This document shows, piece after piece, positions 50,549 to 62,689 of a DNA stretch of 64,000 nt (its first letter is position 1; each line of letters begins with the position of its first letter). The stretch covers positions 744,001 to 808,000 of the forward strand of contig NZ_JAEMNW010000002.1 in the NCBI RefSeq assembly GCF_016481275.1, given 5' to 3'. The DNA comes from Antrihabitans auranticaus (lineage in GTDB: Bacteria; Actinomycetota; Actinomycetes; Mycobacteriales; Mycobacteriaceae). Both the position numbers and the translations under genes were made by a program. The notes beneath the pieces are model-generated. The model made no database searches. It worked only from the letters and a program-made list of their open reading frames with translations, and was not told where the DNA came from.

Positions 50549-51277
50549 CTAGGTGCTCGCGTGCATTTCCCAGAGCAGGATCTCCGAACGTTCCGCCGCG
50601 GTTATCCGGTGCCCACCTGTGCTGGTGAGGCGCACTGTGTCGCCCTGACTCACCTGGCCATAGCCCTCGAACAGAGCACTGCCGTTCGCGACGAAGACGT
50701 GCCCGAAAGGCGCGTCGGGAATGGTGATCGACTGGCCGGGGTCGAGCCGGGCGACATGCAATGCCGCGTGCTTGTTGCCGATCCGGATTGCCGACGAGTT
50801 CCTGTGAGCAGCCATGCCGGAGGCGATCGTGACGAACGGACCGGCATCGACTTCGCGTTCTTCGTAGCTTGGCGCTGTGCCCGTGGTGTCCGGCGAGATC
50901 CACATCTGGACGACTCGAACCCGTTCGCCCTGCAAGTGGTTCGAGGCGTTCTTCTCCGAGTGCCGAATGCCTGTTCCGGCACTCATCCGTTGCGCAAGAC
51001 CTGGATAGATGAGCCCGGAGTTTCCGGCCGAATCCTGATGGACCACAGTCCCTTCCAGCACCCAGGTGATGATCTCCATGTCGCGATGCTGGTGTGTGTC
51101 GAAACCCTCACCGGCTTGGATCGTGTCCTCGTTGTGCACCATGAGCAGACCGTGGGCGTTGGCTGCCAAGTCGAAGTTGCCCGTGGCGGGAAACGATTGC
51201 CGGGAATCGAGCCACTCATTCCACCAGTGGCCGCGATCCGCCGACCTGATCACCCGCACGTCTGTCTGTGTGCCCAT
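50549..51277 (-). CDS. Pirin family protein
   Basis: A 242-residue bicupin of the pirin family; some members are quercetinases or redox regulators. The N-terminal cupin has the metal-binding motif FDTHQHRDMEIITWVLEG, followed by RMSAGTGIRHSEKN. The C-terminal cupin lacks most ligands, as is typical. ATG 51277 is chosen; the longer frame to 51556 overlaps the upstream gene. The 18-bp operator shared with the luciferase-like gene begins 3 bp upstream of the ATG. Confidence 0.87.
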   Translation of the reverse strand: MGTQTDVRVIRSADRGHWWNEWLDSRQSFPATGNFDLAANAHGLLMVHNEDTIQAGEGFDTHQHRDMEIITWVLEGTVVHQDSAGNSGLIYPGLAQRMSAGTGIRHSEKNASNHLQGERVRVVQMWISPDTTGTAPSYEEREVDAGPFVTIASGMAAHRNSSAIRIGNKHAALHVARLDPGQSITIPDAPFGHVFVANGSALFEGYGQVSQGDTVRLTSTGGHRITAAERSEILLWEMHAST

Positions 51278-51279
51278 AG

Positions 51280-51297
51280 TAGTTGCAAGTTCAATTA
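51280..51297 (-). promoter_or_regulatory. Shared operator, copy 1 (pirin)
   Basis: TAGTTGCAAGTTCAATTA (forward strand) is an imperfect dyad that matches copy 2 at 55514-55531 in 15 of 18 positions. The spacing and AT-rich dyad suit a dimeric regulator such as MarR or TetR type. It abuts the pirin ATG, so binding would block initiation. Confidence 0.6.
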
Positions 51298-51315
51298 CTT
51301 CCGCGAAATTCCCCG

Positions 51316-52962
51316 TCAGATCGTCTCGTCGAGCTGCCCGAGCGATTCGGTCAGGCGAAGATTCTCTGAGTAGTCGACGGGACACGCGATGATCGACACG
51401 CCGTCGGAGGCGAGGGCGGTCCGAAGCGTCGGGAGCAGTTCGTCGGCGGACTCGATGCGGTATCCCTTCGCGCCGAAACTCTGCGCGTACATGACGACGT
51501 CCGGATTCGTGAAGGCGACGTCGTAATGGGCGCCCAGTTCCAGGTCCATTTTCCATTCGATGAGCCCGTAGCCGTTGTCTTCCCAGATCAGCACGACCAA
51601 GGGAATCCGCTCGCGGACCGCTGTCTCGATTTCCTGGGAGTTCATCAGAAAGGCGCCATCGCCCATCACGGCCAGAACCTTACGATCCGGTAGGGCCAGC
51701 GAGACGCCCAGGGCGCCGGGCAACGTGAAGGCCATCGTCGACAAGCCGTTGGAAATCAGGCACGTGTTGCGCTCGTAGGTCGGGTACAGGCGGGCCATCC
51801 ACATCTTCGCCGCACCCGTATCGACGAGCACGATGTCGCTTCGGTCGAGTGCTGCGCGGGTGTCGGCGACAACGCGTTGCGGTGCCAGCGGAAATCGCGA
51901 GTCCTTCCCTCCGCGTTCGAGTTCGGCTGCCAGCATTCCGGCGCCGGGGGCGGCCGTGCCGGCTTGGAACCGCTTGTCGCCGAGACCCTTGTTCAGGGCG
52001 TCGAGCGATGCGCTGATGTCGCCGACGATTCCGACGTCGACCGAGTAGTGCATATCGACTTCGGCGGGAAACCGGTGGACGTGAATGATCTTCTTGTCAC
52101 CGTTCGGATTGATCCGAACCGGATCGAACTCCTGTAGCTCGTAGCCAACGGCGATGATCACGTCTGCTTCGTCGAATCCGAAGTTGACGTAGTCCCGCCG
52201 CATGAAACCGATCGTCCCCATGCTGTTCGGGTGATCGTCGGGCATGACGCCCTTGCCGTGAAAAGTGTTGGCGACCAGCACGTCATGGTCGTCGGAGAAT
52301 CGCACGAGCGCAGCGGCCGCATCGTTGCGGGCAGCACCGTGCCCGGCCAATACGACAGGGCAGCGCGCGGAGCGAAGTATCTCGACGGCCCGGTCGACCT
52401 GGCTCGGTGACGGGGATTCGGCCCGGACGACGTTGCGGGGCAGGGGAGCGAGGTCGTACTCCTCCTGGTCGACATCGATGTGTTCCGGGATTGCCAGATA
52501 CACCGCGGCGGGCCGTTCGGACTCGGCTGTTTTGAACGCCTTGCGGAACATCTCGGGGATCGCGCGGGGCGTCGGGACTCCGTCCGACCAGCGGGTGATC
52601 GGCGCGAACATCGTGACGAGATCGACGTACTGATGCGATTCCTTGTACTCGCGGTCCTGCCCGACCTGGGCCGAGATGGCTACGAGCGGAGTGCTGTTGG
52701 TGGTGGCGTCGGCGACGCCCAACTGCATGTTGATCGCGCCCGGTCCGAGCGTCGCGGAGACGACACCGGCGCGTCCGGTGACTCGGCCGTACATCTCCGC
52801 CATGAAGGACGCCGCCTGCTCGTGGCGGGTCAATATGTAGCGAATCTCGGACTTGCTCAGGGCCTGAACGAAGCGGATGTTCTCTTCGCCCGGAATTCCG
52901 AAGACAAGCGAGACGCCTTCGGCTTCCAGACACTGGACCATTAGTTCGGCGGCTGTCGTCAT
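51316..52962 (-). CDS. Acetolactate synthase-like thiamine diphosphate enzyme
   Basis: A 548-residue ThDP-dependent enzyme resembling catabolic acetolactate synthase (AlsS type). The N-terminal PYR domain has FGIPGEENIR and the activating Glu in RHEQAASFMAE. The C-terminal PP domain has the ThDP/Mg motif GDGAFLMNSQEIETAV...EDNGYG. No regulatory small subunit is adjacent, so this is probably not the biosynthetic ilvB. Substrate cannot be fixed; other pyruvate- or oxo-acid-using ThDP enzymes look alike. It is divergent from gabD1, with 59 bp between starts, and lies upstream of pirin on the same strand. Confidence 0.82.
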   Translation of the reverse strand: MTTAAELMVQCLEAEGVSLVFGIPGEENIRFVQALSKSEIRYILTRHEQAASFMAEMYGRVTGRAGVVSATLGPGAINMQLGVADATTNSTPLVAISAQVGQDREYKESHQYVDLVTMFAPITRWSDGVPTPRAIPEMFRKAFKTAESERPAAVYLAIPEHIDVDQEEYDLAPLPRNVVRAESPSPSQVDRAVEILRSARCPVVLAGHGAARNDAAAALVRFSDDHDVLVANTFHGKGVMPDDHPNSMGTIGFMRRDYVNFGFDEADVIIAVGYELQEFDPVRINPNGDKKIIHVHRFPAEVDMHYSVDVGIVGDISASLDALNKGLGDKRFQAGTAAPGAGMLAAELERGGKDSRFPLAPQRVVADTRAALDRSDIVLVDTGAAKMWMARLYPTYERNTCLISNGLSTMAFTLPGALGVSLALPDRKVLAVMGDGAFLMNSQEIETAVRERIPLVVLIWEDNGYGLIEWKMDLELGAHYDVAFTNPDVVMYAQSFGAKGYRIESADELLPTLRTALASDGVSIIACPVDYSENLRLTESLGQLDETI

Positions 52963-53021
52963 AGTGCCACGATAGTGGCAGGCTGGAAGTAGTTCGATCT
53001 TCGAGATGAAGGGATTGACGC

Positions 53022-54395
53022 GTGTCCATCGCCACGATCGACCCGACCACAGGCGAGACGGTGAAGACTTTCGCCGCCGCCACCTCCGACGAAATCGAGG
53101 CTGCGCTTGCGCGCGCCAGCGAGCGGTGGCGAAGTTATCGCAAAACCACGTTTGCGGAGCGCGCCGCGTGGATGCACGCGACAGCCGACCTTCTCGAGGC
53201 GGAAGCCGACGACGTTGCGGCGTTGATGACGCTCGAAATGGGCAAGACCCTGAAGTCCGCGAAAGCCGAGGCGCTCAAGTGCGCCAAGGGCTTTCGCCAC
53301 TACGCTGACAACGCCGAGGCCATGCTGGCCGACGAAGTCACCGACGCGACGAAGGTCGGCGCGTCGCAGGCGTACGCGCAGTATCAGCCGCTGGGCGTCG
53401 TCCTCGCTGTGATGCCGTGGAACTTCCCGCTCTGGCAGGTCGTCCGGTTTGCGGCACCCGCGTTGATGGCCGGTAACGTCGGCATTCTCAAGCACGCGTC
53501 GAACGTGCCGCAATCGGCGCTCTATCTCGCCGATGTCATTGCGCGCGGCGGCTTTCCGGAGGGCTGCTTCCAGACCCTGCTGATCGGGTCGGGTGCCGTG
53601 GAGGGAATCCTGCGGGATCCACGTGTCGTCGCCGCGACGCTTACGGGCAGCGAGCCGGCCGGACGTTCCGTCGCAGCCATCGCCGGCGACGAGGTCAAGC
53701 ACACCGTGCTCGAGTTGGGCGGCAGCGACCCGTTCGTCGTCATGCCATCGGCGGACCTCGCGAAGGCCGCCGAAGTGGCGGTGACGGCACGGGTGCAGAA
53801 CAACGGCCAATCATGTATCGCGGCAAAGCGTTTCATCGTGCACGCAGACGTCTACGACGAGTTCGCGAAGTTGTTCGTCGATCGGATGAACGCGTTGCGG
53901 GTTGGGGACCCGAAGGACCCCGACACCGACATCGGACCGCTCGCGACCGAGCAGGGCCGCAAGGATGTCGAAGAACTGGTCGACCAGGCCGTGGCCGACG
54001 GCGCCACGGTTATGTGCGGTGGCAAGCGCCTCGACGGCCCGGGCTGGTTCTACCCGGCGACCGTGATCGGCGACATCACGCCGGAGATGGAGATGTACAC
54101 GGCTGAGGTGTTCGGACCGGTCGCGTCGCTGTACCGAGCAGCCGACATCGACGAGGCCATCGATATCGCCAACGCCACGACCTTCGGCCTCGGTGCGAAC
54201 GCTTGGACCACCGACGATGGCGAGCAGCAACGGTTCATCGACGACATCGAAGCGGGAGGCGTCTTCATCAACGGGATGACGATTTCCTACAACGAGTTGC
54301 CCTTCGGCGGCGTCAAGCGGTCCGGCACCGGCCGCGAACTGTCAGCCCACGGAATCCGCGAGTTCTGCAACATCAAGACGGTGTGGGTGGGCTGA
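53022..54395 (+). CDS. gabD1: Succinate-semialdehyde dehydrogenase (NADP+)
   Basis: Oxidises succinate semialdehyde to succinate. The 457-residue sequence closely resembles mycobacterial GabD1 as I recall it: IATIDPTTGETVKTF at the start, LGVVLAVMPWNFPLWQ, the catalytic Glu in LELGGSDPFVV and the catalytic Cys in NNGQSCIAAKRF. The GTG start at 53022 is preceded by AAGGGA. It pairs divergently with the ThDP enzyme. In mycobacteria GabD1 is discussed with an oxoglutarate decarboxylase bypass; whether the neighbouring ThDP enzyme supplies the aldehyde is unknown. Confidence 0.9.
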   Translation: MSIATIDPTTGETVKTFAAATSDEIEAALARASERWRSYRKTTFAERAAWMHATADLLEAEADDVAALMTLEMGKTLKSAKAEALKCAKGFRHYADNAEAMLADEVTDATKVGASQAYAQYQPLGVVLAVMPWNFPLWQVVRFAAPALMAGNVGILKHASNVPQSALYLADVIARGGFPEGCFQTLLIGSGAVEGILRDPRVVAATLTGSEPAGRSVAAIAGDEVKHTVLELGGSDPFVVMPSADLAKAAEVAVTARVQNNGQSCIAAKRFIVHADVYDEFAKLFVDRMNALRVGDPKDPDTDIGPLATEQGRKDVEELVDQAVADGATVMCGGKRLDGPGWFYPATVIGDITPEMEMYTAEVFGPVASLYRAADIDEAIDIANATTFGLGANAWTTDDGEQQRFIDDIEAGGVFINGMTISYNELPFGGVKRSGTGRELSAHGIREFCNIKTVWVG

Positions 54396-54399
54396 CCGA

Positions 54400-55500
54400 T
54401 CAGCTCCGGCCGCGCGCCACCCTCGTTGCGGTGCGCGCGGCCAGTTGGCTCGCGTACGTCGGCGCCTCGGGAACGTGGGCGGGCTTCTTCGCGTCCAGTT
54501 CTCGACGCAGTACCGGAACGACCTCGCTGCCGAGCAACTCGATCTGCTCCAGAACGGTATGCAACGGCAGTCCGGCGTGATCGACCAGGAACAACTGGCG
54601 CTGATAATCGCCGAAGCTCTCCCGGAAGGTGAGGGTCTTTTCGATGACCTGATCGGGGGTGCCGACGGTCAGGGGAGTTTCGGCGGTGAACTCTTCGAGC
54701 GACGGGCCATGCCCGTAAACCGGTGCGTTGTCGAAGTACGGCCGGAACTCGTCGATCGCATCCTGGGAGTTCTTCCGCATGAACACCTGGCCGCCAAGCC
54801 CGACGATCGCCTGCTCCGCAGCGCCGTGACCGTAGTGCGCGTACCGCGTGCGGTACAGCTCGATCAGCCGCTGGAAGTGTTCCTTCGGCCAGAAGATGTG
54901 GTTGGCGAAGAAGCCGTCGCCGTAGTAGGCGGCCTGCTCCGCGATCTCGGGGCTGCGGATCGATCCATGCCAGACGAACGGCGGGATGCCGTCCAGCGGC
55001 CGTGGTGTCGAAGTGAAGGCCTGCAACGGTGTTCGGTGTTTGCCCGACCAGTCGACGACGTCTTCGCGCCACAGGCGGTGCAGTAGGTGGTAGTTCTCGA
55101 TGGCAAGGTCGATGCCGTCGCGAATGTCCTTGCCGAACCAGGGGTAGACCGGTCCGGTGTTACCGCGGCCGAGCATGAGGTCCACGCGGCCGTCGGCGAG
55201 ATGCTGCAGCATCGCGAAGTCCTCGGCGATTTTCACCGGGTCGTTAGTGGTGATCAGTGTTGTGGCAGTCGAGAGGATGATGCGCTCGGTGCGGGCAGCG
55301 ATAAACCCGAGCATCGTTGTCGGTGAGGACGGCACGAAGGGAGGATTGTGGTGCTCGCCGCTCGCGAAGACGTCCAGCCCCACTTCTTCGGCCTTCTGGG
55401 CCATGGCGACCATCGCCTTGATGCGCTCAGCTTCGGATGGCGTTCTGCCCGTGGTGGGATCGGTCGTCACGTCGCCGACGGTGAAGATTCCGAACTGCAT
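54400..55500 (-). CDS. Luciferase-like FMN-dependent monooxygenase
   Basis: A 366-residue TIM-barrel flavin monooxygenase of the bacterial luciferase-like family. It starts MQFGIFTVGDV, has GEHHNPPF, LADGRVDLMLGRGN and a C-terminal VLRRELDAKKPAHVP tail. It resembles the FMN-dependent CE1758-type group. Substrate is unknown. ATG 55500 is chosen because GGAGGAAG lies 4-5 bp upstream; the ATG at 55512 belongs to that site. The shared operator lies at 55514-55531. It is divergent from the Baeyer-Villiger-type gene and converges with gabD1. Confidence 0.85.
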   Translation of the reverse strand: MQFGIFTVGDVTTDPTTGRTPSEAERIKAMVAMAQKAEEVGLDVFASGEHHNPPFVPSSPTTMLGFIAARTERIILSTATTLITTNDPVKIAEDFAMLQHLADGRVDLMLGRGNTGPVYPWFGKDIRDGIDLAIENYHLLHRLWREDVVDWSGKHRTPLQAFTSTPRPLDGIPPFVWHGSIRSPEIAEQAAYYGDGFFANHIFWPKEHFQRLIELYRTRYAHYGHGAAEQAIVGLGGQVFMRKNSQDAIDEFRPYFDNAPVYGHGPSLEEFTAETPLTVGTPDQVIEKTLTFRESFGDYQRQLFLVDHAGLPLHTVLEQIELLGSEVVPVLRRELDAKKPAHVPEAPTYASQLAARTATRVARGRS

Positions 55501-55513
55501 GACTTCCTCCATC

Positions 55514-55531
55514 TAGTTCAAAGTTCAACTA
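55514..55531 (-). promoter_or_regulatory. Shared operator, copy 2 (luciferase-like gene)
   Basis: TAGTTCAAAGTTCAACTA (forward strand) is a dyad with 7 of 8 arm positions paired around a central AG. It is nearly the same as copy 1 in front of pirin. It lies just upstream of the ribosome binding site of the luciferase-like gene and within the region shared with the divergent monooxygenase gene. Confidence 0.65.
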
Positions 55532-55615
55532 CTTGAACCTGCACTCGTATTGCAGTATTCCCGTCGGTCCGCCGCGTACGGTTAGCGCCGGGGCTTCACT
55601 GCGATGGAGGTAGTT

Positions 55616-57079
55616 GTGCCGGCAAGTGGTGGCGTTGACGAGCCGAAGATCGCGATCATCGGTACAGGGTTCGGCGGTCTGGCGGCCGCGATCGAGTTGA
55701 AGAACGCGGGCTACGAAGACCTGGTGATCTTCGAACGCGGCGACGAGGTCGGCGGCGTGTGGCGGGAGAACACCTATCCGGGCGCGGCGTGCGACGTCCC
55801 GTCCCCGTTCTATTCGTTCTCCTTCGGACGAAATCCGAAGTGGCCGCGGCGCTACTCGGCGCAGCCCGACATTCTCGACTACCTGCGGCGAGCCGCCGAC
55901 ACGTACGGCGTCAGGCCGCACGTGCGATTCGAAACGGAGGTCAAGGCAGCCGATTTCGACGAAACGACGGGACGCTGGTCGGTTCACACCACCAACGGCG
56001 ACATCACGGAGGTCGATGTCCTGATCTCGGCGGTCGGCCAGCTTTCGCGACCTGCTTTTCCGAATATCAAGGGGTGCAACAGCTTTACCGGTCCGATGTT
56101 CCATTCCGCGGAGTGGGACCACGACGTCGACCTCGCGGGCAAGCGGGTGGCGGTAATCGGGACCGGTGCGAGCGCGATTCAATTCGTGCCCGAGATTCAG
56201 CCGCAGGTGGCCGAATTGACGCTCTTCCAGCGCACGCCACCATATGTGTTGCCGCGCATGGACACCGAGTTCTCGAAGGTGCATCACAAGATCTTCACGC
56301 GCGTCCCCGCGACTCAGCTCATCGAGCGCGGCGGCTGGTGGGGCGTGACCGAAGCCCTCGGTTCGGCGTTCCTGTACTCGAAGGCACTCTCCGCCACAGT
56401 CAAGCGACTGTGCCGCGCACACCTTCGGCACCAGGTGAAGGACAAAACGCTACGGGCCAAGCTGTGGCCGGACTATCCGGTCGGCTGCAAGCGAATACTG
56501 TTCTCCAGCAACTATCTACCGTCGCTGACCGAGCCGAACGTCGAGGTGGTCACCGACGGCATCGCCGAGATCACGCCGACCGGAATCAAGACAGCCGACG
56601 GAGCAACACGGGAAGTCGATGTGATCATTCTCGGGACCGGATTCACGGCGAGCGATTTTCTCGCACCGATGGGAATCACCGGACTTGGTGGCCGGGATTT
56701 GCGCGAGCAGTGGTCCGACAGTGCGCGTGCGTATCTCGGAGTCTCGGTGCCGGACTTCCCGAACCTGTTTCTCATGTACGGTCCCAACACCAACCTCGGC
56801 TCGGGATCCATCGTGTTCATGCTCGAATGCCAGGCTCGCTATATTCGTCAGGCGATCACGCACGCGCAGCAGAAGCAGCGTCCGATCATGGTGCGCGAGT
56901 CCGTGGCCGAGGAGTTCGACGCCGGACTGCAGGAGCGCCTCGTCGACGGTGTGTGGTCGCAGTGCAGCAGTTGGTATCGCAATTCGAGCGGTCGGGTCAG
57001 CACGAACTGGCCGGGCCTGCAGACCGAATACCGCAAGCGGACGGCGTCTTTCGACGAAACCGCGTACGAGTACGTGTGA
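55616..57079 (+). CDS. Flavin-containing (Baeyer-Villiger-type) monooxygenase
   Basis: A 487-residue FAD/NADPH monooxygenase. The FAD-binding GTGFGG motif is near the N-terminus, and the NADPH-binding GTGASA lies mid-sequence. Between them the Baeyer-Villiger fingerprint FxGxxxHxxxW is seen as FTGPMFHSAEW. It probably inserts oxygen next to a ketone or acts on a related lipophilic substrate. GTG 55616 is preferred, with GGAGGTAG just upstream; ATG 55604 is inside that site. It is followed after 31 bp by two unrecognised genes in the same direction. Confidence 0.88.
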   Translation: MPASGGVDEPKIAIIGTGFGGLAAAIELKNAGYEDLVIFERGDEVGGVWRENTYPGAACDVPSPFYSFSFGRNPKWPRRYSAQPDILDYLRRAADTYGVRPHVRFETEVKAADFDETTGRWSVHTTNGDITEVDVLISAVGQLSRPAFPNIKGCNSFTGPMFHSAEWDHDVDLAGKRVAVIGTGASAIQFVPEIQPQVAELTLFQRTPPYVLPRMDTEFSKVHHKIFTRVPATQLIERGGWWGVTEALGSAFLYSKALSATVKRLCRAHLRHQVKDKTLRAKLWPDYPVGCKRILFSSNYLPSLTEPNVEVVTDGIAEITPTGIKTADGATREVDVIILGTGFTASDFLAPMGITGLGGRDLREQWSDSARAYLGVSVPDFPNLFLMYGPNTNLGSGSIVFMLECQARYIRQAITHAQQKQRPIMVRESVAEEFDAGLQERLVDGVWSQCSSWYRNSSGRVSTNWPGLQTEYRKRTASFDETAYEYV

Positions 57080-57110
57080 CCGCACGGCAACAAGGGGAGG
57101 GGAGCGGTTC

Positions 57111-57326
57111 ATGAGCGCGAAGGCAGACCTCGAGGAAGAACTCGGTGGCGATCTTCCGGTTCTGGAGTTGGTGTCCGAGCAGGATTGCGAGGAGCTGCTG
57201 ACCATGTTCCGCGCGGCGCGCGAGCTGGAAAAGCAGACGCTGGACGAGTCGATCGACGCCACACTCGGCGCGTTACCGCGGCTGTTTCGCGGCGCCGCGC
57301 GCAAGATCATGTTCGGGGGCAAATGA
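57111..57326 (+). CDS. Small unrecognised protein downstream of the monooxygenase
   Basis: A 71-residue protein with no family I recognise. The N-terminal half is acidic (KADLEEELGGDLP, SEQDCEELL), followed by a helix and a basic amphipathic C-terminus (LPRLFRGAARKIMFGGK) that could touch a membrane or a partner protein. ATG 57111 has GGGGAGGGGAG upstream, a very strong ribosome binding site. Its stop overlaps the next ATG (ATGA), so the two products are probably made in fixed proportion. Confidence 0.68.
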   Translation: MSAKADLEEELGGDLPVLELVSEQDCEELLTMFRAARELEKQTLDESIDATLGALPRLFRGAARKIMFGGK

Positions 57327-58555
57327 TGGCCGACCTCATCACACGCGCTGCGGTCGTCATGCTCGCTCGCACCCTCCATGTCCCTGTCGAGAAGGTGAAG
57401 CATCTCGAGTCGCTCGGCGCCGAGAACGTCGACGCGATCCGGCATCGGATGGCGAACACGCTTTACGACGAGCACGCCGAGGTGTTCAAAAGAATCAGTG
57501 CGCTTGTCCCGATCGTGCCGTTGAAGATCGCGCTCCCGATCGTCCAGAAGACCGTGCCGGCGACGATGGCCGGCCGTGCCGCCGGTGCGGTCGGGCTCGC
57601 ACATCCGAAGAAGGCCAGCTCCGCGCTGGCTCTTCTGCAGGTCGACTACGCAGCCGATGCTGCGCCGTACATCGATCCGCGTGCAGTCGTGAAGCTCGCG
57701 CCGGTGATCGACGATCATGCTCCCGTCGTAGCCATCGCGCGGGAGGTGTTGCGCCGCAAGGACTACATCACCGCAGCACAGTTCGTCGAGGCTGCGACGC
57801 CGGAATTGATCCGGGCTGTGGAGCAGGGCATCGACGACAACGAGGGGTTGATGCGTGCGGGTGCTTTCGTCCACAACGGCGCGATCATCAGTGACATCCT
57901 CCGCGTAATCGTCGAGTCGAATCCGGCTCGTGTTTCCGACATCATCCAGGCCGCAGCCGAGGGCCCGACCGACCTTCGCCTGGATGCGTTGTCGGTCCTG
58001 TTCCGCATCGACGCCGACCTCATCTCGACTGTCGGCGACGTCATGTTCGCCGAGACCGATCCGCTCGTGCTCGCCGACTTGTTCAAGTCCTACCTCGACG
58101 AAGGCGCAGCACCCGAGTTGCTCACCTTCGCAGGCCATCTCAGCCCATCGGCACTGGACTCGCTAGCAACCAACCCGGTGATCGAGGACGACGACGTGCT
58201 ATTCGCAGTCATCAGAACGGCGGTCGCCGAGCGGAATCCCGACGTCTGGCGCGGCATGCTCGACGTCGCCGAGCGGACAGCGCCCGGCGTGCAGAGCCGC
58301 GCTGTCCGCATGTTGACCGACATCGATGTCAGCGAGTTCGACGGCGTCGCCGCACTGGCTACCGAACACGGTTTGTGGCCGTCGGTTCTGCGCTTGGCTG
58401 CCGGGCAGGAACCCGACCTCCAGGCGCAGATGGCGTCGCGCTTTCAGGCGACGGTCACCGACGCGGACCGCGCGTGCATCCATGAACACGCGGCCGCTCT
58501 CGGACTGACCGAACAGGTCGCGCCGTTGCTGGCAAGCCTGGCTGCACGCGACTGA
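57323..58555 (+). CDS. Unrecognised all-helical protein, 410 aa
   Basis: A 410-residue protein that I cannot assign. It looks almost entirely alpha-helical. Residues 1-90 contain a hydrophobic stretch (ISALVPIVPLKIALPIV) that may be membrane-associated. From about residue 110 onward there are repeated helical pairs with Asp/Ala-rich turns, reminiscent of HEAT-like repeats but not clearly so. No catalytic motif is visible. It is translationally coupled to the 71-residue gene and probably co-transcribed with the monooxygenase. It converges with the P450 gene, with 7 bp between stops. Confidence 0.7.
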   Translation: MMADLITRAAVVMLARTLHVPVEKVKHLESLGAENVDAIRHRMANTLYDEHAEVFKRISALVPIVPLKIALPIVQKTVPATMAGRAAGAVGLAHPKKASSALALLQVDYAADAAPYIDPRAVVKLAPVIDDHAPVVAIAREVLRRKDYITAAQFVEAATPELIRAVEQGIDDNEGLMRAGAFVHNGAIISDILRVIVESNPARVSDIIQAAAEGPTDLRLDALSVLFRIDADLISTVGDVMFAETDPLVLADLFKSYLDEGAAPELLTFAGHLSPSALDSLATNPVIEDDDVLFAVIRTAVAERNPDVWRGMLDVAERTAPGVQSRAVRMLTDIDVSEFDGVAALATEHGLWPSVLRLAAGQEPDLQAQMASRFQATVTDADRACIHEHAAALGLTEQVAPLLASLAARD

Positions 58556-58562
58556 ACGGCGG

Positions 58563-60011
58563 TTACGCTGTCTGCTTGTCGGTGTCGGCCTGGCGACGCT
58601 CGACGGCGGTCAACGCCTTCAAATGGATCGGCAGACCGTCAACCGGAGTCGGTCCGGTTCCCCAGCCGAGTGGCAGCTCATATCCGGACGGAACACTCCA
58701 TCGATAGCGCAGCAGCATCTGGTGCATGACGCCCTTCACTGTCATGTTCGCGAATTGCTGACCGATGCATTTGTGGGCTCCGCCGCCGAAGGGCGACCAC
58801 GCATAGCGGTGGCTCTTCTCCTCATGGCGGGCGAAACGCTCCGGATCGAACACGTCCGGATTGCTCCACCACTGCTCCATCCGCATCGACGGGTACGGGG
58901 CATACATCACCGGAGTGCCGGCGGGGATGAAGTGACCGAGCAGTTCGGTGTCGCGCAGAGTTTCCCGAAGCTGTTGTCCCACAGGAGCAAACATGCGCAG
59001 CGTTTCTTTGAACACCAGATCGAGTGACGGCAGCCGATCGAGGTCGTCGTAGTCGAGAGTGGGTTTCCCCAGGGCCAACGATTCCGCGCGTAGTCGCACC
59101 TGCCACTCGGGATGCTTGCCCAACAGGTAACCCATCATCGACAGCGCGAGCGTGCTCGTGTCGTGGGCCGCCATCAGCACGAAGATCATGTGGTCGACGA
59201 TTTCCTCGTCGGTGAACGTATGCCCCTCCTCGCTTGCCGCGTGGCACAGGACGCTGAAAAGGTCGTTCCCTCCGCCGTTGCGTTTGGCCGGCAGTTCGCG
59301 GCGGAAATAGTCGGCGAGAACCTTCCGGCCGCGCAAACCTTTCGACCACATTCCGCCGGGAACATTCGTCCGGATCACTGCCTGCCCGCCCCGCACGGCA
59401 TCTTCGAATGCGCGCTCGAGCCGCTTGGCTTGGGGCCCGAGTTCGGTGCCGACGAAGACCTCGGTTGCCAACTCGAGGAGTAGTTGCTTGGTGTTGGAGT
59501 AAAGCGGGAAATCGTGCCCTGGCTGCCAACTGTCGAGCCCACGTGTGATGCCTGGTGTCATCAGGTCGAGATAGCCGACGAGACGGGTCCGGGTGAACGC
59601 CTGCTGCAGAATTCGCCGGTGGTAGATGTGCTCGTCGTAGTCCATGAGCATGACGCCGCCGTGGAAGAACGGCCCGATCATGAACATCCAGCCCTTTTCG
59701 GCGGAGAACGTCTTCTCCTTGTCGAGCAGGATCGCTTGCGCTGCATCCGGTCCGATCGCGACCACGACCTTGCGACCCATCAGTCCTGCCCATCCGACGG
59801 GTCCGTACGTCTCGTAGTTCTTGCGGGCGAATTTCAGGACATCCATCAGCGCGACAAGGCTGTAGCCGATGATCGGGGCGCCCTGTTGACCCATGACAGG
59901 AACCAGATCACTGCCGACCGGCGGCTGTGCCAGCGGTTCGACAGGTGACGGGTAGTGCGTGGTCAGTTCGAAGGCGGAAGTCTTGGCCTTGCGGGCAATC
60001 GTCGACAGCAT
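58563..60011 (-). CDS. Cytochrome P450
   Basis: A 482-residue soluble-type bacterial P450. The I-helix oxygen-activation motif is AAHDTST, the K-helix ExxR is ETLR, and the heme-binding loop is FGGGAHKCIGQQFA with the Cys ligand. The C-terminus is VDGLPIHLKAL. The N-terminus lacks a membrane anchor. Overall character recalls sterol- or lipid-oxidising families of mycobacteria such as CYP136, but this is a weak impression. ATG 60011 is chosen (AAAGGA upstream). It is divergent from a TetR gene. No ferredoxin gene is adjacent. Confidence 0.88.
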   Translation of the reverse strand: MLSTIARKAKTSAFELTTHYPSPVEPLAQPPVGSDLVPVMGQQGAPIIGYSLVALMDVLKFARKNYETYGPVGWAGLMGRKVVVAIGPDAAQAILLDKEKTFSAEKGWMFMIGPFFHGGVMLMDYDEHIYHRRILQQAFTRTRLVGYLDLMTPGITRGLDSWQPGHDFPLYSNTKQLLLELATEVFVGTELGPQAKRLERAFEDAVRGGQAVIRTNVPGGMWSKGLRGRKVLADYFRRELPAKRNGGGNDLFSVLCHAASEEGHTFTDEEIVDHMIFVLMAAHDTSTLALSMMGYLLGKHPEWQVRLRAESLALGKPTLDYDDLDRLPSLDLVFKETLRMFAPVGQQLRETLRDTELLGHFIPAGTPVMYAPYPSMRMEQWWSNPDVFDPERFARHEEKSHRYAWSPFGGGAHKCIGQQFANMTVKGVMHQMLLRYRWSVPSGYELPLGWGTGPTPVDGLPIHLKALTAVERRQADTDKQTA

Positions 60012-60118
60012 CGGCAGATGTCCTTTCGCGTCGTTGCGAAGCACTGTGACGCCACTCTCAACTGATGGCGCCTGCCTTCAATTACCCACCATGGACGATC
60101 GTTTGTCAAGATGGCGGA

Positions 60119-60760
60119 GTGACACGCGCGCAGACCTGGGGTGGCCGGACGGCCGACGAGCGCCGAACGGACCGCCGCGAACGCCTGATGGCTGCGGCGA
60201 CCGAGATCTGGGCGGACGGTGGCTGGGCCTCGGTGACGATGCGCGGCGTCTGTGCCAAAGCCGGCCTGATCGACCGCTACTTCTACGAAAGCTTCGCCGA
60301 CCGTGACGAATTGCTGGTCGCGGTATGGGATCGCGCACGAGATCGGGTCACGAGTTCGATGTTGCAATCGGTGGCGGCACAGGCCGGCGCGCCACCGCTG
60401 GATGCGCTGCGGTCGGCCGTCCGCGGCGTGTTGGACGGCTTCGTCCAAGAGCCCAGTCGTGCGCAGATCCTCTTCGGTGACCATTCGGGGAGCGCGAATC
60501 TGGAGCACCGGCGACACCGTCTGCTGATCGACGTCGCCGATGTGATGGTCGAAATCGGTATGCAGTATTTGAAGTCCGACGTCGACCGGAGGGAATTCCG
60601 GCAGTCGGTGCTGATGGGTGTCGGCGGTTTCTTGGAACTCGTCGCGGCGTGGCGTGCAGGCGTCATCGAGGGGTCTGCCGACGACATCGTCGAGCAGGTT
60701 TCGCACTTCGGTGCGATTCTCGGCAAGTACTACCTGCCGGACGAGGACATCAGTTCGTAG
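60119..60760 (+). CDS. TetR family regulator divergent from the P450 gene
   Basis: A 213-residue regulator. The N-terminal helix-turn-helix (RERLMAAATEIWADGGWASVT, CAKAGLIDRYFYESFADRDEL) is standard; the ligand domain follows. GTG 60119 is used; a longer frame from 60065 lacks a ribosome binding site. The 107-bp gap to the P450 start should contain its operator, but no convincing long dyad is seen. The 3' end overlaps the next, convergent TetR gene by 11 bp. Confidence 0.84.
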   Translation: MTRAQTWGGRTADERRTDRRERLMAAATEIWADGGWASVTMRGVCAKAGLIDRYFYESFADRDELLVAVWDRARDRVTSSMLQSVAAQAGAPPLDALRSAVRGVLDGFVQEPSRAQILFGDHSGSANLEHRRHRLLIDVADVMVEIGMQYLKSDVDRREFRQSVLMGVGGFLELVAAWRAGVIEGSADDIVEQVSHFGAILGKYYLPDEDISS

Positions 60761-61388
60761 CGGACCTGAGGTGGTCGCCGATCGCCACGAAGAGATCTGC
60801 CGACTGCTCGATCAGCTCGTCCTTTGTGATGTCGAGGCCGCCGCCGAGCCACGCCGTGACAGTTTCGAAGAGACCGCCGACGAGGTGGACCGCGGCGAAC
60901 TCGGCGCGTTTACCCGCCTTGAGCGTTGCCTCCGGGCCGTAGAACTCCTGGCCGGCGTGGGCGACCAGATGTGCGAACGTAGTCATGACCTCAGTTCTGC
61001 GCGCTGCGAGACCTTCGTTGCTCAGCCCTTCGACGAACGCGACGCGACTCTTACGGGGGTCGTCGGTCAGTAATTCGACCGCTGCGCGAATTGCCGCGCG
61101 GGCCTTGGCTTCCGCGTCATCGGGCGCGAGTTCTACGGCTGCCATGATGGCTTGCGCAAGCTCGGCGACGACCGAATCGAACACCTCGTGCAGCACGCTG
61201 TCACGCGTCGCGAAGCTCTCGTAGTAGTACCGCTCGTTCAGACCCGCCTGCGCGCACAAGCCGGCGACGGTCAACTTCGCGAAACCCTGCGTACCGATTA
61301 TTTCCAGCGCCGCTTCGAGCAGGGCAGCGCGGCGCAACGCCCGGCGTTCGGTCGCGGGGACGCCCGCATATGCGCGTTGTGCAGCCAT
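60750..61388 (-). CDS. TetR family regulator divergent from the MpaB-family gene
   Basis: A 212-residue regulator with the helix-turn-helix RRAALLEAALEIIGTQGFAKLT and CAQAGLNERYYYESFATRDSVL. It resembles the neighbouring TetR in length and in the Y/F-YESF element, and the two may have a common origin. ATG 61388 is preferred; ATG 61397 is possible, but a TATGCC -10-like element lies so close that it would leave no leader. The two 25-bp repeats upstream are its likely operators. Confidence 0.84.
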   Translation of the reverse strand: MAAQRAYAGVPATERRALRRAALLEAALEIIGTQGFAKLTVAGLCAQAGLNERYYYESFATRDSVLHEVFDSVVAELAQAIMAAVELAPDDAEAKARAAIRAAVELLTDDPRKSRVAFVEGLSNEGLAARRTEVMTTFAHLVAHAGQEFYGPEATLKAGKRAEFAAVHLVGGLFETVTAWLGGGLDITKDELIEQSADLFVAIGDHLRSATN

Positions 61389-61395
61389 GACCGTC

Positions 61396-61450
61396 ATTCT
61401 GGCATAGCGTCTTGCCACAATTCCAATTCTGGGGGAGACTCTTGCCAGAA
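61396..61450. promoter_or_regulatory. Two 25-bp operator copies 30 bp apart
   Basis: Copy 1 (61396-61420) and copy 2 (61426-61450) agree in 19 of 25 positions. Each has the form ATTCTGG-N10-TCTTGCCA-N-AA, an inverted-repeat-like arrangement of TTCTGG and CCAGAA. The 30-bp register is close to three helical turns, so two repressor dimers could bind the same face. The pair fills most of the gap between the TetR gene (minus) and the MpaB-family gene (plus). Confidence 0.7.
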
Positions 61451-61466
61451 CCGAGAGGACAAACTC

Positions 61467-62396
61467 ATGTCGGGCTATTTCGAGCGTGACTCCGCGGTTG
61501 TGCGGGTCATGAGCAAGCGCGCGGTCGGGTACACCTACGGCTTGCGCGCACTGGTGATCGGCGCTGCGAATCCGCGGTTGTATGTGGGCACAGCGGCGCA
61601 CACCGAACATCGCGACACTCCGTATACGCGGCTCGCGATCACCGGTCACATGTTCGAGGCAGTGTTTCTCGGCACGAAGGAGGAGGCCGACCGGGCACTT
61701 GCTTTCACGGCCCGCAAGCACACGAAAGTGGTTGGCTCGCTACCCGAGGACGCCGGCGCGCACCACCCGGCAGGCACGCCGTACAGCGCGTTCGATCCGC
61801 ATTTGATGTTCATGACGATGGCATTCACGTTCGATTCGGCGGAACGCATGCACGACCTGCTGGTACGTCGGCTGACCGATCGTGAGCGCGAGCAGCTGTG
61901 GCAGGACTACGTCCGGTGGGCGGAACTGTTCGGCATGCCCCGGTCCGCCGCGCCGGCAACGTATCCGGAGTTCCGCGCGTACTTCGACGCATACCTGGAG
62001 TCCGACGAACTGTTTCTCACTGCTGAGGCGGAGTTGGTGGGTTCCTACCTGGCGGGACTGCGGTCCGAAGGGTTCCGGATGAAGCCCGAAGTCGTGTCCA
62101 ACGTCAATGCGCTCGTCGTCCAGGGCAGCCTGCCGCCGCGGATCAGGGAGTTGTACGGGATGCGATGGCGGCGCCGGGACGAGGCCGCATTCCAAGCCGT
62201 GGTTGCCGCGGTTCGCGCGGTCCATCGGCGCCCGGGGGTACCGCTTCCGTTCGACCTGCGCAACGTCCTCGTCGGCGACAGCGATTCGGCGTACAAAATG
62301 GTGTCGAAGACCGAGCGGGAGAATGTCCGGCACGGCCGTGCGAGCATGCCGGGAGTAGATCTCGGAGCAGGGCTGAAGTCTGTCCGCACTGCCTGA
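61467..62396 (+). CDS. MpaB/DUF2236 family oxygenase-like protein
   Basis: A 309-residue all-helical protein of the MpaB/rubber-oxygenase family, some members of which bind heme b. The TRLAITGHMFEAVFLG, RKHTKVVG and GTPYSAFDPHL segments match the family core; the His in RKHTKVVG is the likely heme ligand by analogy with Lcp. The WVH motif common after the DPxL segment is replaced by FMTMAF, so activity may differ or be lost. ATG 61467 has GAGAGGAC 8 bp upstream. It is probably controlled by the divergent TetR. Confidence 0.8.
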   Translation: MSGYFERDSAVVRVMSKRAVGYTYGLRALVIGAANPRLYVGTAAHTEHRDTPYTRLAITGHMFEAVFLGTKEEADRALAFTARKHTKVVGSLPEDAGAHHPAGTPYSAFDPHLMFMTMAFTFDSAERMHDLLVRRLTDREREQLWQDYVRWAELFGMPRSAAPATYPEFRAYFDAYLESDELFLTAEAELVGSYLAGLRSEGFRMKPEVVSNVNALVVQGSLPPRIRELYGMRWRRRDEAAFQAVVAAVRAVHRRPGVPLPFDLRNVLVGDSDSAYKMVSKTERENVRHGRASMPGVDLGAGLKSVRTA

Positions 62397-62689
62397 ACCC
62401 TCCGCCTGCGGTCGTAATTCAGGCATGCGCGCGAGGCGAACGCGGCCGGATTTCGTTCGACGTCGCGCCGCGTTTGCGGGCGCCAGCCCTAAGAGGTTCG
62501 CAGCGTCCTGCCTCTCGCCGCGCTCGCCGGCGTCCCGCCACTTTCGAGCCGTTCGCGAAATCTGGTTGATCCCAGCAGGCGAGACACAGTCGGTCGACGC
62601 GGCTGTCTCTGTAAGGAATGATGGCAATCTGGTTGCCTCGAAGTGACCAATGTCGGAATGGCAGGCATCGAGACGAACAGGGCGGCCCG
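62397..62689 (+). other. 293-bp gene-free region before rapZ
   Basis: This lies between the MpaB-family gene and rapZ and marks the right edge of the accessory block. No ORF with support was seen. A TAAGGAATGAT stretch near 62612-62622 could contribute a -10 element for rapZ, but no matching -35 is clear. No long dyad, repeat or terminator hairpin was recognised, although CG-rich short inverted segments occur throughout. Confidence 0.3.

What the first reader, a model, noticed from the sequence alone, without database searches (positions are those of the whole stretch)
55616..58555. Three-gene unit: Baeyer-Villiger-type monooxygenase with two unrecognised coupled proteins
The monooxygenase is followed after 31 bp by a 71-residue protein with a very strong ribosome binding site. 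That gene is fused by ATGA overlap to a 410-residue all-helical protein with no motif I recognise. The tight arrangement suggests a working complex, perhaps membrane delivery of a lipophilic substrate or a regulatory partner. This is the best candidate in the window for an undescribed system.
Basis: inference. Interest (0 to 1): 0.62.

Follow-up and report, generated by a model that had tools for sequence, protein, structure and literature searches.

The report
Unnamed protein pair beside a monooxygenase
An ordinary ketone-oxidising enzyme gene is followed by two coupled genes of an undescribed pair, a tiny protein and a curved helical scaffold-like protein, which recurs in many actinobacteria mostly without that enzyme and whose job is still unknown.

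Summary
In detail: a type I Baeyer-Villiger monooxygenase (BVMO) gene, 31 bp, a 71-aa gene, an ATGA overlap, and a 410-aa all-helical gene. The reading as one three-gene unit is only partly supported. The two downstream genes form a module of their own. The window's genome has six copies, and 79 of 81 big-gene copies (78 loci, 40 genomes of Actinomycetota) have the small gene directly upstream, 50 with a 4-bp overlap. The next gene upstream is FMO/BVMO-like in 2 of 81. The window BVMO's seven closest homologues examined (59-75% identity) lie in loci without the pair. In Antrihabitans, however, 4 of 19 pairs lie one or two genes downstream of a BVMO, more than chance predicts. The two window proteins have no useful match in Pfam, NCBIfam, PHROGs or PADLOC. 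AlphaFold2 models the big protein as an armadillo-like solenoid (pLDDT 88.8). The small one resembles that solenoid's own N-terminal cap and ends in a cationic helix. Most likely mechanism, mostly inferred: a two-subunit scaffold at a membrane or lipid surface, recruited into several catabolic operons including this one. The 12-kb block between uvrC and rapZ is lineage-specific.

The parts
55616..57079 (+). Type I Baeyer-Villiger monooxygenase gene (ORF open from ATG 55604; GTG 55616 preferred)
   Evidence: Pfam FMO-like E 3.6e-19; phenylacetone monooxygenase 1w4x E 1.1e-74; fingerprint FTGPMFHSAEWD and GxGxxG/A motifs
57092..57104 (+). Purine-rich ribosome-binding region before the small gene
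   Evidence: read directly
57111..57326 (+). Small gene, 71 aa, first member of the two-gene module
   Evidence: paralogues in the same genome; upstream of 79 of 81 big genes; AlphaFold2 four helices, pLDDT 91.1
57323..57326 (+). ATGA stop-start overlap coupling small and big genes
   Evidence: 4-bp overlap in 50 of 79 pairs
57323..58555 (+). Big gene, 410 aa, armadillo-like alpha-solenoid, second member of the module
   Evidence: six copies in own genome; AlphaFold2 pLDDT 88.8, pTM 0.83; VIA-align Z up to 12.6 to importin-alpha
50549..62689 (.). Lineage-specific block of 11 genes between uvrC and rapZ that holds the trio (context)
   Evidence: uvrC and rapZ are neighbours, or one gene apart, in six relatives of four genera; gene identities

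Best explanation
The stretch holds two things. One is a standard type I BVMO gene. The other is an obligate two-gene module that is a unit by itself: a ~70-aa protein and an armadillo-like alpha-solenoid, made by coupled translation and forming one complex. The small subunit probably packs against the solenoid's N-terminal cap, which it resembles, and its cationic C-terminal helix probably holds the complex on a membrane or lipid surface. The solenoid then offers a long groove to a protein or peptide client. In this genome one copy of the module stands downstream of a BVMO, so it is probably made together with that enzyme and may hold it, or a partner enzyme, at the surface where a lipophilic substrate lies. 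Shown: co-conservation and gene overlap. Predicted by computation: the folds. Suggested: homology of small protein and cap; the cationic helix. Inferred: the complex itself, tethering, the scaffold role, any contact with the BVMO.
For: 79 of 81 big genes have the small gene directly upstream, 50 with 4-bp and 5 with 1-bp overlap. Pairs evolve together (67 pairs, distance correlation 0.74, permuted maximum 0.08; nearest neighbours agree in 40 of 67), which adjacency alone would also give. Neighbours differ and share the pair's strand at chance level (42 of 81 upstream, 35 of 80 downstream), so the pair is self-contained. Big protein: helical superhelix, pLDDT 88.8, armadillo-type structures rank first; no catalytic family. 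Small protein has the same order of helices as big residues 1-77; hhalign P 0.0018-0.0042, 0 of 60 column shuffles as high. C-terminal helix of the small protein: mean charge +3.1, +2 or more in 64 of 66; the 12 big proteins over 560 aa have Ala/Gly/Lys-rich ends. BVMO first or second upstream in 4 of 19 Antrihabitans pairs.
Against: No experiment and no complex model. hhalign probability for the small/cap match is low (8-15%) and the reversed control reached 18.7 against 22.5. VIA-align Z 12.6 is within what helical repeats can reach by chance, and Foldseek gave no match at E <= 0.001. The amphipathic moment of the C-terminal helix (mean 0.42) is lower than that of the best stretch of the long helix (0.51), and only 27% pass the joint cut of moment 0.5 and charge +2 (background 1.1%), so the helix could pack on the solenoid instead. 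Neighbours give no single pathway.
Confidence: 0.38

Rival explanations
1. The pair is an independent cytosolic module (for example a peptide- or protein-binding adaptor) with no relation to membranes or to the BVMO; its place behind the BVMO is an accident of the lineage-specific block.
For: Chance-level strand agreement with neighbours; 2 of 81 immediate upstream genes FMO-like against 3 of 150 in the background; seven BVMO homologue loci without the pair; generic armadillo-like fold, and armadillo domains are typically peptide binders (function from general knowledge).
Against: 4 of 19 Antrihabitans pairs near a BVMO, about 0.1 expected; conserved cationic end of the small subunit.
Confidence: 0.3
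2. The BVMO, small and big proteins form a dedicated complex in which the pair delivers substrate to, or regulates, the monooxygenase.
For: 31-bp spacing here; same order with 1 bp between BVMO and small gene in L092, and with one gene between in L075 and L093; excess over chance.
Against: 72 of 78 pair loci show no strong BVMO hit; seven BVMO homologue loci show no pair, and five of them have a GMC-type gene beside the BVMO; the BVMOs near pairs belong to different subfamilies (34.7-40.2% identity to the window's in L092, L075 and L093).
Confidence: 0.13
3. The pair is a sensor or regulatory partner switched with TetR-type regulators, answering to a lipophilic ligand.
For: Immediate upstream gene is TetR-type in 9 of 81 and the downstream gene in 5 of 78, against 5 of 150 background genes; in L015 and L017 the TetR gene ends 9 and 27 bp before the small gene.
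Against: Most pairs have no adjacent TetR gene; some of the loci are orthologous and not independent; no DNA-binding or ligand-binding family in either protein.
Confidence: 0.1
4. The pair is a toxin-antitoxin-like or defence module.
For: Two coupled genes, small one first, multi-copy and patchy.
Against: No PADLOC model in 8 proteins scanned; the window big protein has no match in the plasmid or phage collections; no nuclease, kinase or DNA-binding family; long repeat-type proteins of 201-668 aa.
Confidence: 0.06

Closest known systems
Type I Baeyer-Villiger monooxygenases (phenylacetone monooxygenase 1w4x, steroid monooxygenase 4ap3, cyclohexanone monooxygenases)
   Same: The window BVMO matches them over its FAD and NADPH domains (E 1.1e-74 to 1w4x) and carries the fingerprint.
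   Different: Shorter (487-491 aa against about 540); belongs to a close group with homologues in seven relatives examined that stand beside a GMC-type gene in five.
Armadillo-repeat solenoids (importin alpha, APC)
   Same: Predicted helical superhelix; importin-alpha chains rank first, Z up to 12.6 over 324 residues.
   Different: About 10% identity; no Pfam Arm match at E <= 10 in the six members scanned; bacterial, with an obligate small partner; Z is not decisive for helical repeats.
MgtE_N / FliG_M type bacterial helical repeats (Pfam PF03448, PF14841)
   Same: One of six paralogues matches MgtE_N at E 0.0011 and one FliG_M at 0.12.
   Different: Five of six members do not match MgtE_N; no magnesium channel or flagellar domain found in these proteins.
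Phasins and other lipid-inclusion proteins (resemblance from recall)
   Same: Ala/Gly/Lys-rich ends of the 12 big proteins over 560 aa and the cationic end of the small protein.
   Different: No phasin match listed among the Pfam results for the members scanned; the main body is a solenoid.

Membership tests
Type I BVMO | Fingerprint FxGxxxHxxxW[PD] | tested here: met
   FTGPMFHSAEWD at residue 161
Type I BVMO | Two nucleotide-binding GxGxx[GA] motifs flanking the fingerprint | tested here: met
   GTGFGG at 20 and GTGASA at 186
Type I BVMO | Sequence similarity to characterised members | tested here: met
   1w4x E 1.1e-74; no NCBIfam equivalog reaches its cut-off
Type I BVMO | NADPH-dependent oxygen insertion beside a ketone | not testable with these tools
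   needs an assay
Armadillo-repeat family | Right-handed superhelix of helical repeats | tested here: inconclusive
   AlphaFold2 model pLDDT 88.8; best VIA-align Z 12.6, within the tool's warning range for helical repeats; Foldseek none at E <= 0.001
Armadillo-repeat family | Arm sequence model match | tested here: not met
   no Arm family among the matches at E <= 10 for 6 members
MgtE_N domain | Pfam PF03448 match | tested here: inconclusive
   1 of 6 members, E 0.0011; cut-off not shown
Toxin-antitoxin or defence module | Match to a known defence or toxin family | tested here: not met
   none for 8 proteins in PADLOC; no toxin family in Pfam or NCBIfam results
Toxin-antitoxin or defence module | Carriage on plasmids or phages | tested here: not met
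   tblastn of the window big protein: no match
BVMO-small-big trio as a conserved system | BVMO gene next to the pair in relatives | tested here: not met
   2 of 81 immediate upstream genes FMO-like; none of 7 BVMO homologue loci has the pair

The most novel reading that the evidence does not exclude
A previously unrecognised two-protein scaffold of Actinomycetota: an armadillo-like solenoid plus a detached copy of its own N-terminal cap, tethered to membrane or lipid surfaces, kept in up to ten paralogous copies per genome, each holding a different catabolic enzyme or client, and in Antrihabitans recruited several times into Baeyer-Villiger oxidation operons.
Probability: 0.25. Interest if true: 0.72.

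Novelty: new variant of a known kind. Interest (0 to 1): 0.48.

Why it matters
The pair is conserved, coupled, multi-copy and found in 8 of 296 sampled genomes of the phylum and 43 of 298 of the order, yet none of the curated libraries tried here names it. Scaffolds that hold enzymes at lipid surfaces are little known in these bacteria. If the scaffold reading holds, the window locus is a simple test case in which a candidate enzyme is encoded next to the scaffold. If not, a widespread orphan family with an obligate partner still needs a function.

Tried and rejected
Mobile-element origin: the window big protein has no match in the plasmid or phage collections, and base composition hardly differs across the 12-kb block, so the block is called lineage-specific on synteny alone. 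Sigma-70 promoter and terminator scan: nothing found, uninformative for this genome. Repeats in the block: only short pairs of the chance-like kind. PCP_red similarity of the small protein: 2 of 18 members, best E 0.066, not pursued. Foldseek on the small model: best E 4.9. Profile search of PDB sequences: none at E <= 1 for the big protein; for the small one 16 weak ones, best E 0.0021 to an engineered cytochrome with no stretch passing alone, taken as chance. PADLOC: none. Five paper searches: the listed titles and abstract starts show no paper on this pair; no paper was opened, and most subscription papers are not held. Considered and set aside: naming the BVMO's substrate; the GMC-type gene beside its homologues recalls cholesterol oxidase ChoD only from memory, and only the one in L153 was tested (Pfam GMC_oxred).

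Limits of the counts. Genome searches scored only the best 4 to 10 candidates in many genomes, so copy numbers are lower bounds, and the three samples overlap. The match counts (12 in G004, 11 in G034) include second pieces of one gene; distinct places are 10 and 9. My first estimate used the inflated counts and is replaced (53 pairs in 11 genomes: expected 0.21, P for 4 or more 6e-5; genus alone 19 pairs: expected 0.10). It treats genes as independent, assumes about 0.95 gene per kb, and was made after seeing the cases. Neighbourhoods fetched: 58 loci from own genome and family search, leaving out G024 (two fragments), G017 and G034:C73; 16 places of the order search and 4 of the phylum search, a part of those listed. 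Gene calls come from my own codon-usage script, which missed 12 small genes later found by six-frame search; for those loci the immediate upstream gene comes from the uncorrected list. In the tandem loci L061 and L074 the upstream gene counted for the second copy is the first copy.

Full report
What is in the sequence. The BVMO reading frame runs 55604-57079; the GTG at 55616, with GGAGGT just before it, is the better start. The small gene 57111-57326 encodes 71 aa and overlaps the 410-aa gene 57323-58555 by ATGA. A P450 gene (58563-60044, minus strand) converges on the end of the big gene, and a luciferase-like monooxygenase gene (54400-55512, minus strand) diverges from the BVMO.

The monooxygenase is ordinary. 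It matches FMO-like in Pfam and phenylacetone monooxygenase in the PDB at E 1.1e-74, and it carries the BVMO fingerprint and nucleotide-binding motifs. The window's genome has 28 matches to this protein at E 1e-30 or better; two relatives of the genus have 39 and 31.

The two other proteins are unnamed. The window's small and big proteins have no Pfam or NCBIfam match at E <= 1, only weak PHROGs hits (best E 0.072), no PADLOC model, and no PDB relative by sequence that I trust. Across members the best hint is MgtE_N at E 0.0011 in one of six paralogues.

They are a module of their own. The window's genome (G000; handles of the same genus match Antrihabitans stalactiti and A. stalagmiti) holds six big genes, each with a small gene directly upstream (a seventh small-gene hit, E 1.3, is taken as chance). 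In wider samples 22 of 121 genomes of the family, 43 of 298 of the order and 8 of 296 of the phylum have the big gene (overlapping samples). I fetched 78 neighbourhoods with 81 big genes from 40 genomes. The gene caller found the small gene upstream of 67; a six-frame search added 12, so 79 of 81 are paired; 50 pairs overlap by 4 bp and 5 by 1 bp. Two big genes (in L064 and L109) have no small gene within 1.5 kb. Neighbours are mixed: strand agreement is 42 of 81 upstream and 35 of 80 downstream. The immediate upstream gene is TetR-type in 9 of 81 (5 of 150 in the background set), Abhydrolase_1 in 6, dienelactone hydrolase in 5, FMO-like in 2 (3 of 150 in the background). Several loci are orthologous and not independent.

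Is the trio real biology? It recurs directly in L092 of A. stalagmiti (two BVMO-type genes, small, big, SDR). With one gene between, it recurs in L075 of A. stalactiti (BVMO, alpha/beta hydrolase, small, big) and in L093 of the same species. The expectation for a BVMO in the first or second upstream place on the same strand is about 0.21 in 53 pairs of 11 genomes, and 0.10 in the 19 pairs of the genus; four cases, all in the genus, are unlikely by chance (Poisson 6e-5 and 3e-6; post hoc). The immediate upstream place alone gives 2 against 0.10 expected (P 0.005). Three of the four big proteins fall on one side of a branch of 28 rows (SH-aLRT 99), L093 on the other, and the BVMOs of L092, L075 and L093 are 34.7-40.2% identical to the window's. 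Against a dedicated trio, the closest homologues of the window's own BVMO in seven genomes (58.7 to 74.5% identity) stand in 14-14.5 kb loci without the pair, and in five of the seven a gene that begins like a GMC oxidoreductase is next to the BVMO (Pfam test in L153 only). So the BVMO occurs without the pair and the pair without the BVMO; in Antrihabitans they seem to have come together more than once.

Where the locus came from. In six relatives of four genera uvrC and rapZ are direct neighbours (4) or have one gene between them (2: a P450 28% identical to the window's, and a 168-aa ORF). In the window 12.1 kb with 11 genes lies between them. Base composition is even. The block is therefore lineage-specific, probably gained.

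Structure. AlphaFold2 with nine sequences models the big protein with pLDDT 88.8 and pTM 0.83 as a chain of 29 helices. Foldseek gives no match at E <= 0.001; VIA-align ranks importin-alpha armadillo domains first, Z up to 12.6 over 324 residues, close to what helical repeats reach by chance. The small protein (pLDDT 91.1) has helices 3-11, 16-20, 23-53 and 57-68 with LP before the last. The big protein starts in the same way: 5-18, 26-31, 33-59, then LVPIVP, then 67-77. hhalign aligns the first half of the small protein with big residues 11-52 at most (P 0.0018 to 0.0042, probability only 8-15%; none of 60 column shuffles as high; the reversed profile reached 18.7 against 22.5). Conserved L11, L21-equivalent and P56 of the small protein match L18, L28 and P66 of the big one in spacing (10 and 35 against 10 and 38; by eye). 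I take this homology as likely but not shown.

Mechanism. A non-enzymatic two-subunit scaffold is the simplest reading: a solenoid without a catalytic family, an obligate small partner that resembles its cap, and gene overlap. The last helix of the small protein is cationic in nearly all members (64 of 66 at +2 or more; mean +3.1), with a moderate amphipathic moment (0.42, below the 0.51 of the best stretch of the long helix), and the 12 big proteins longer than 560 aa end in Ala/Gly/Lys-rich tails. This favours attachment to a membrane or lipid surface, but packing against the solenoid would also explain it. Contact with the BVMO is possible and untested.

Verdict. Observation confirmed; three-gene system only partly supported. 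The real find is the pair, which no curated library tried here names and which no paper listed in five searches describes as far as titles and abstract starts show (no paper opened).

Noticed in passing
window 50549-62689: A 12.1-kb block of 11 genes (pirin, thiamine-diphosphate enzyme, aldehyde dehydrogenase, luciferase-like monooxygenase, BVMO, pair, P450, two TetR, MPAB/Lcp-type oxygenase) lies between uvrC and rapZ, which are neighbours or one gene apart in six relatives.
   Followed up: partly
L153, L154, L155, L157, L158: The closest homologues of the window BVMO stand beside a GMC-oxidoreductase-type gene in five of seven genomes; in L157 and L158 a TetR gene overlaps the BVMO start by 4 bp (Pfam test of the GMC gene in L153 only).
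   Followed up: partly
L018:5989-7953, L066:6378-8363, L067:5796-7802: Long forms of the big protein (654-668 aa) with Ala/Gly/Lys-rich C-terminal tails; in all three a gene of similar start (MDMPI_N type in 3 of 81 upstream genes) lies just upstream.
   Followed up: partly
L061:6141-8900, L074:6222-8609: Tandem duplications of the whole small-big pair.
   Followed up: no
L079, L082, L104: In three genomes the pair follows recX in a recA-recX neighbourhood (recA by eye).
   Followed up: no
L092, L148: Two BVMO-type genes of L092 are 50% and 46% identical to two BVMO-type genes near the pair in G273, a genome of another genus, so a BVMO-pair neighbourhood may reach beyond Antrihabitans.
   Followed up: partly
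L134, L137, L138: Genes that begin alike and look TIR-like stand near the pair in three genomes of another family; Pfam counts TIR_2 in 2 of 81 immediate upstream genes.
   Followed up: no
G000, G002, G003: Antrihabitans genomes are rich in BVMO-type genes: 28, 39 and 31 matches at E 1e-30 or better.
   Followed up: no
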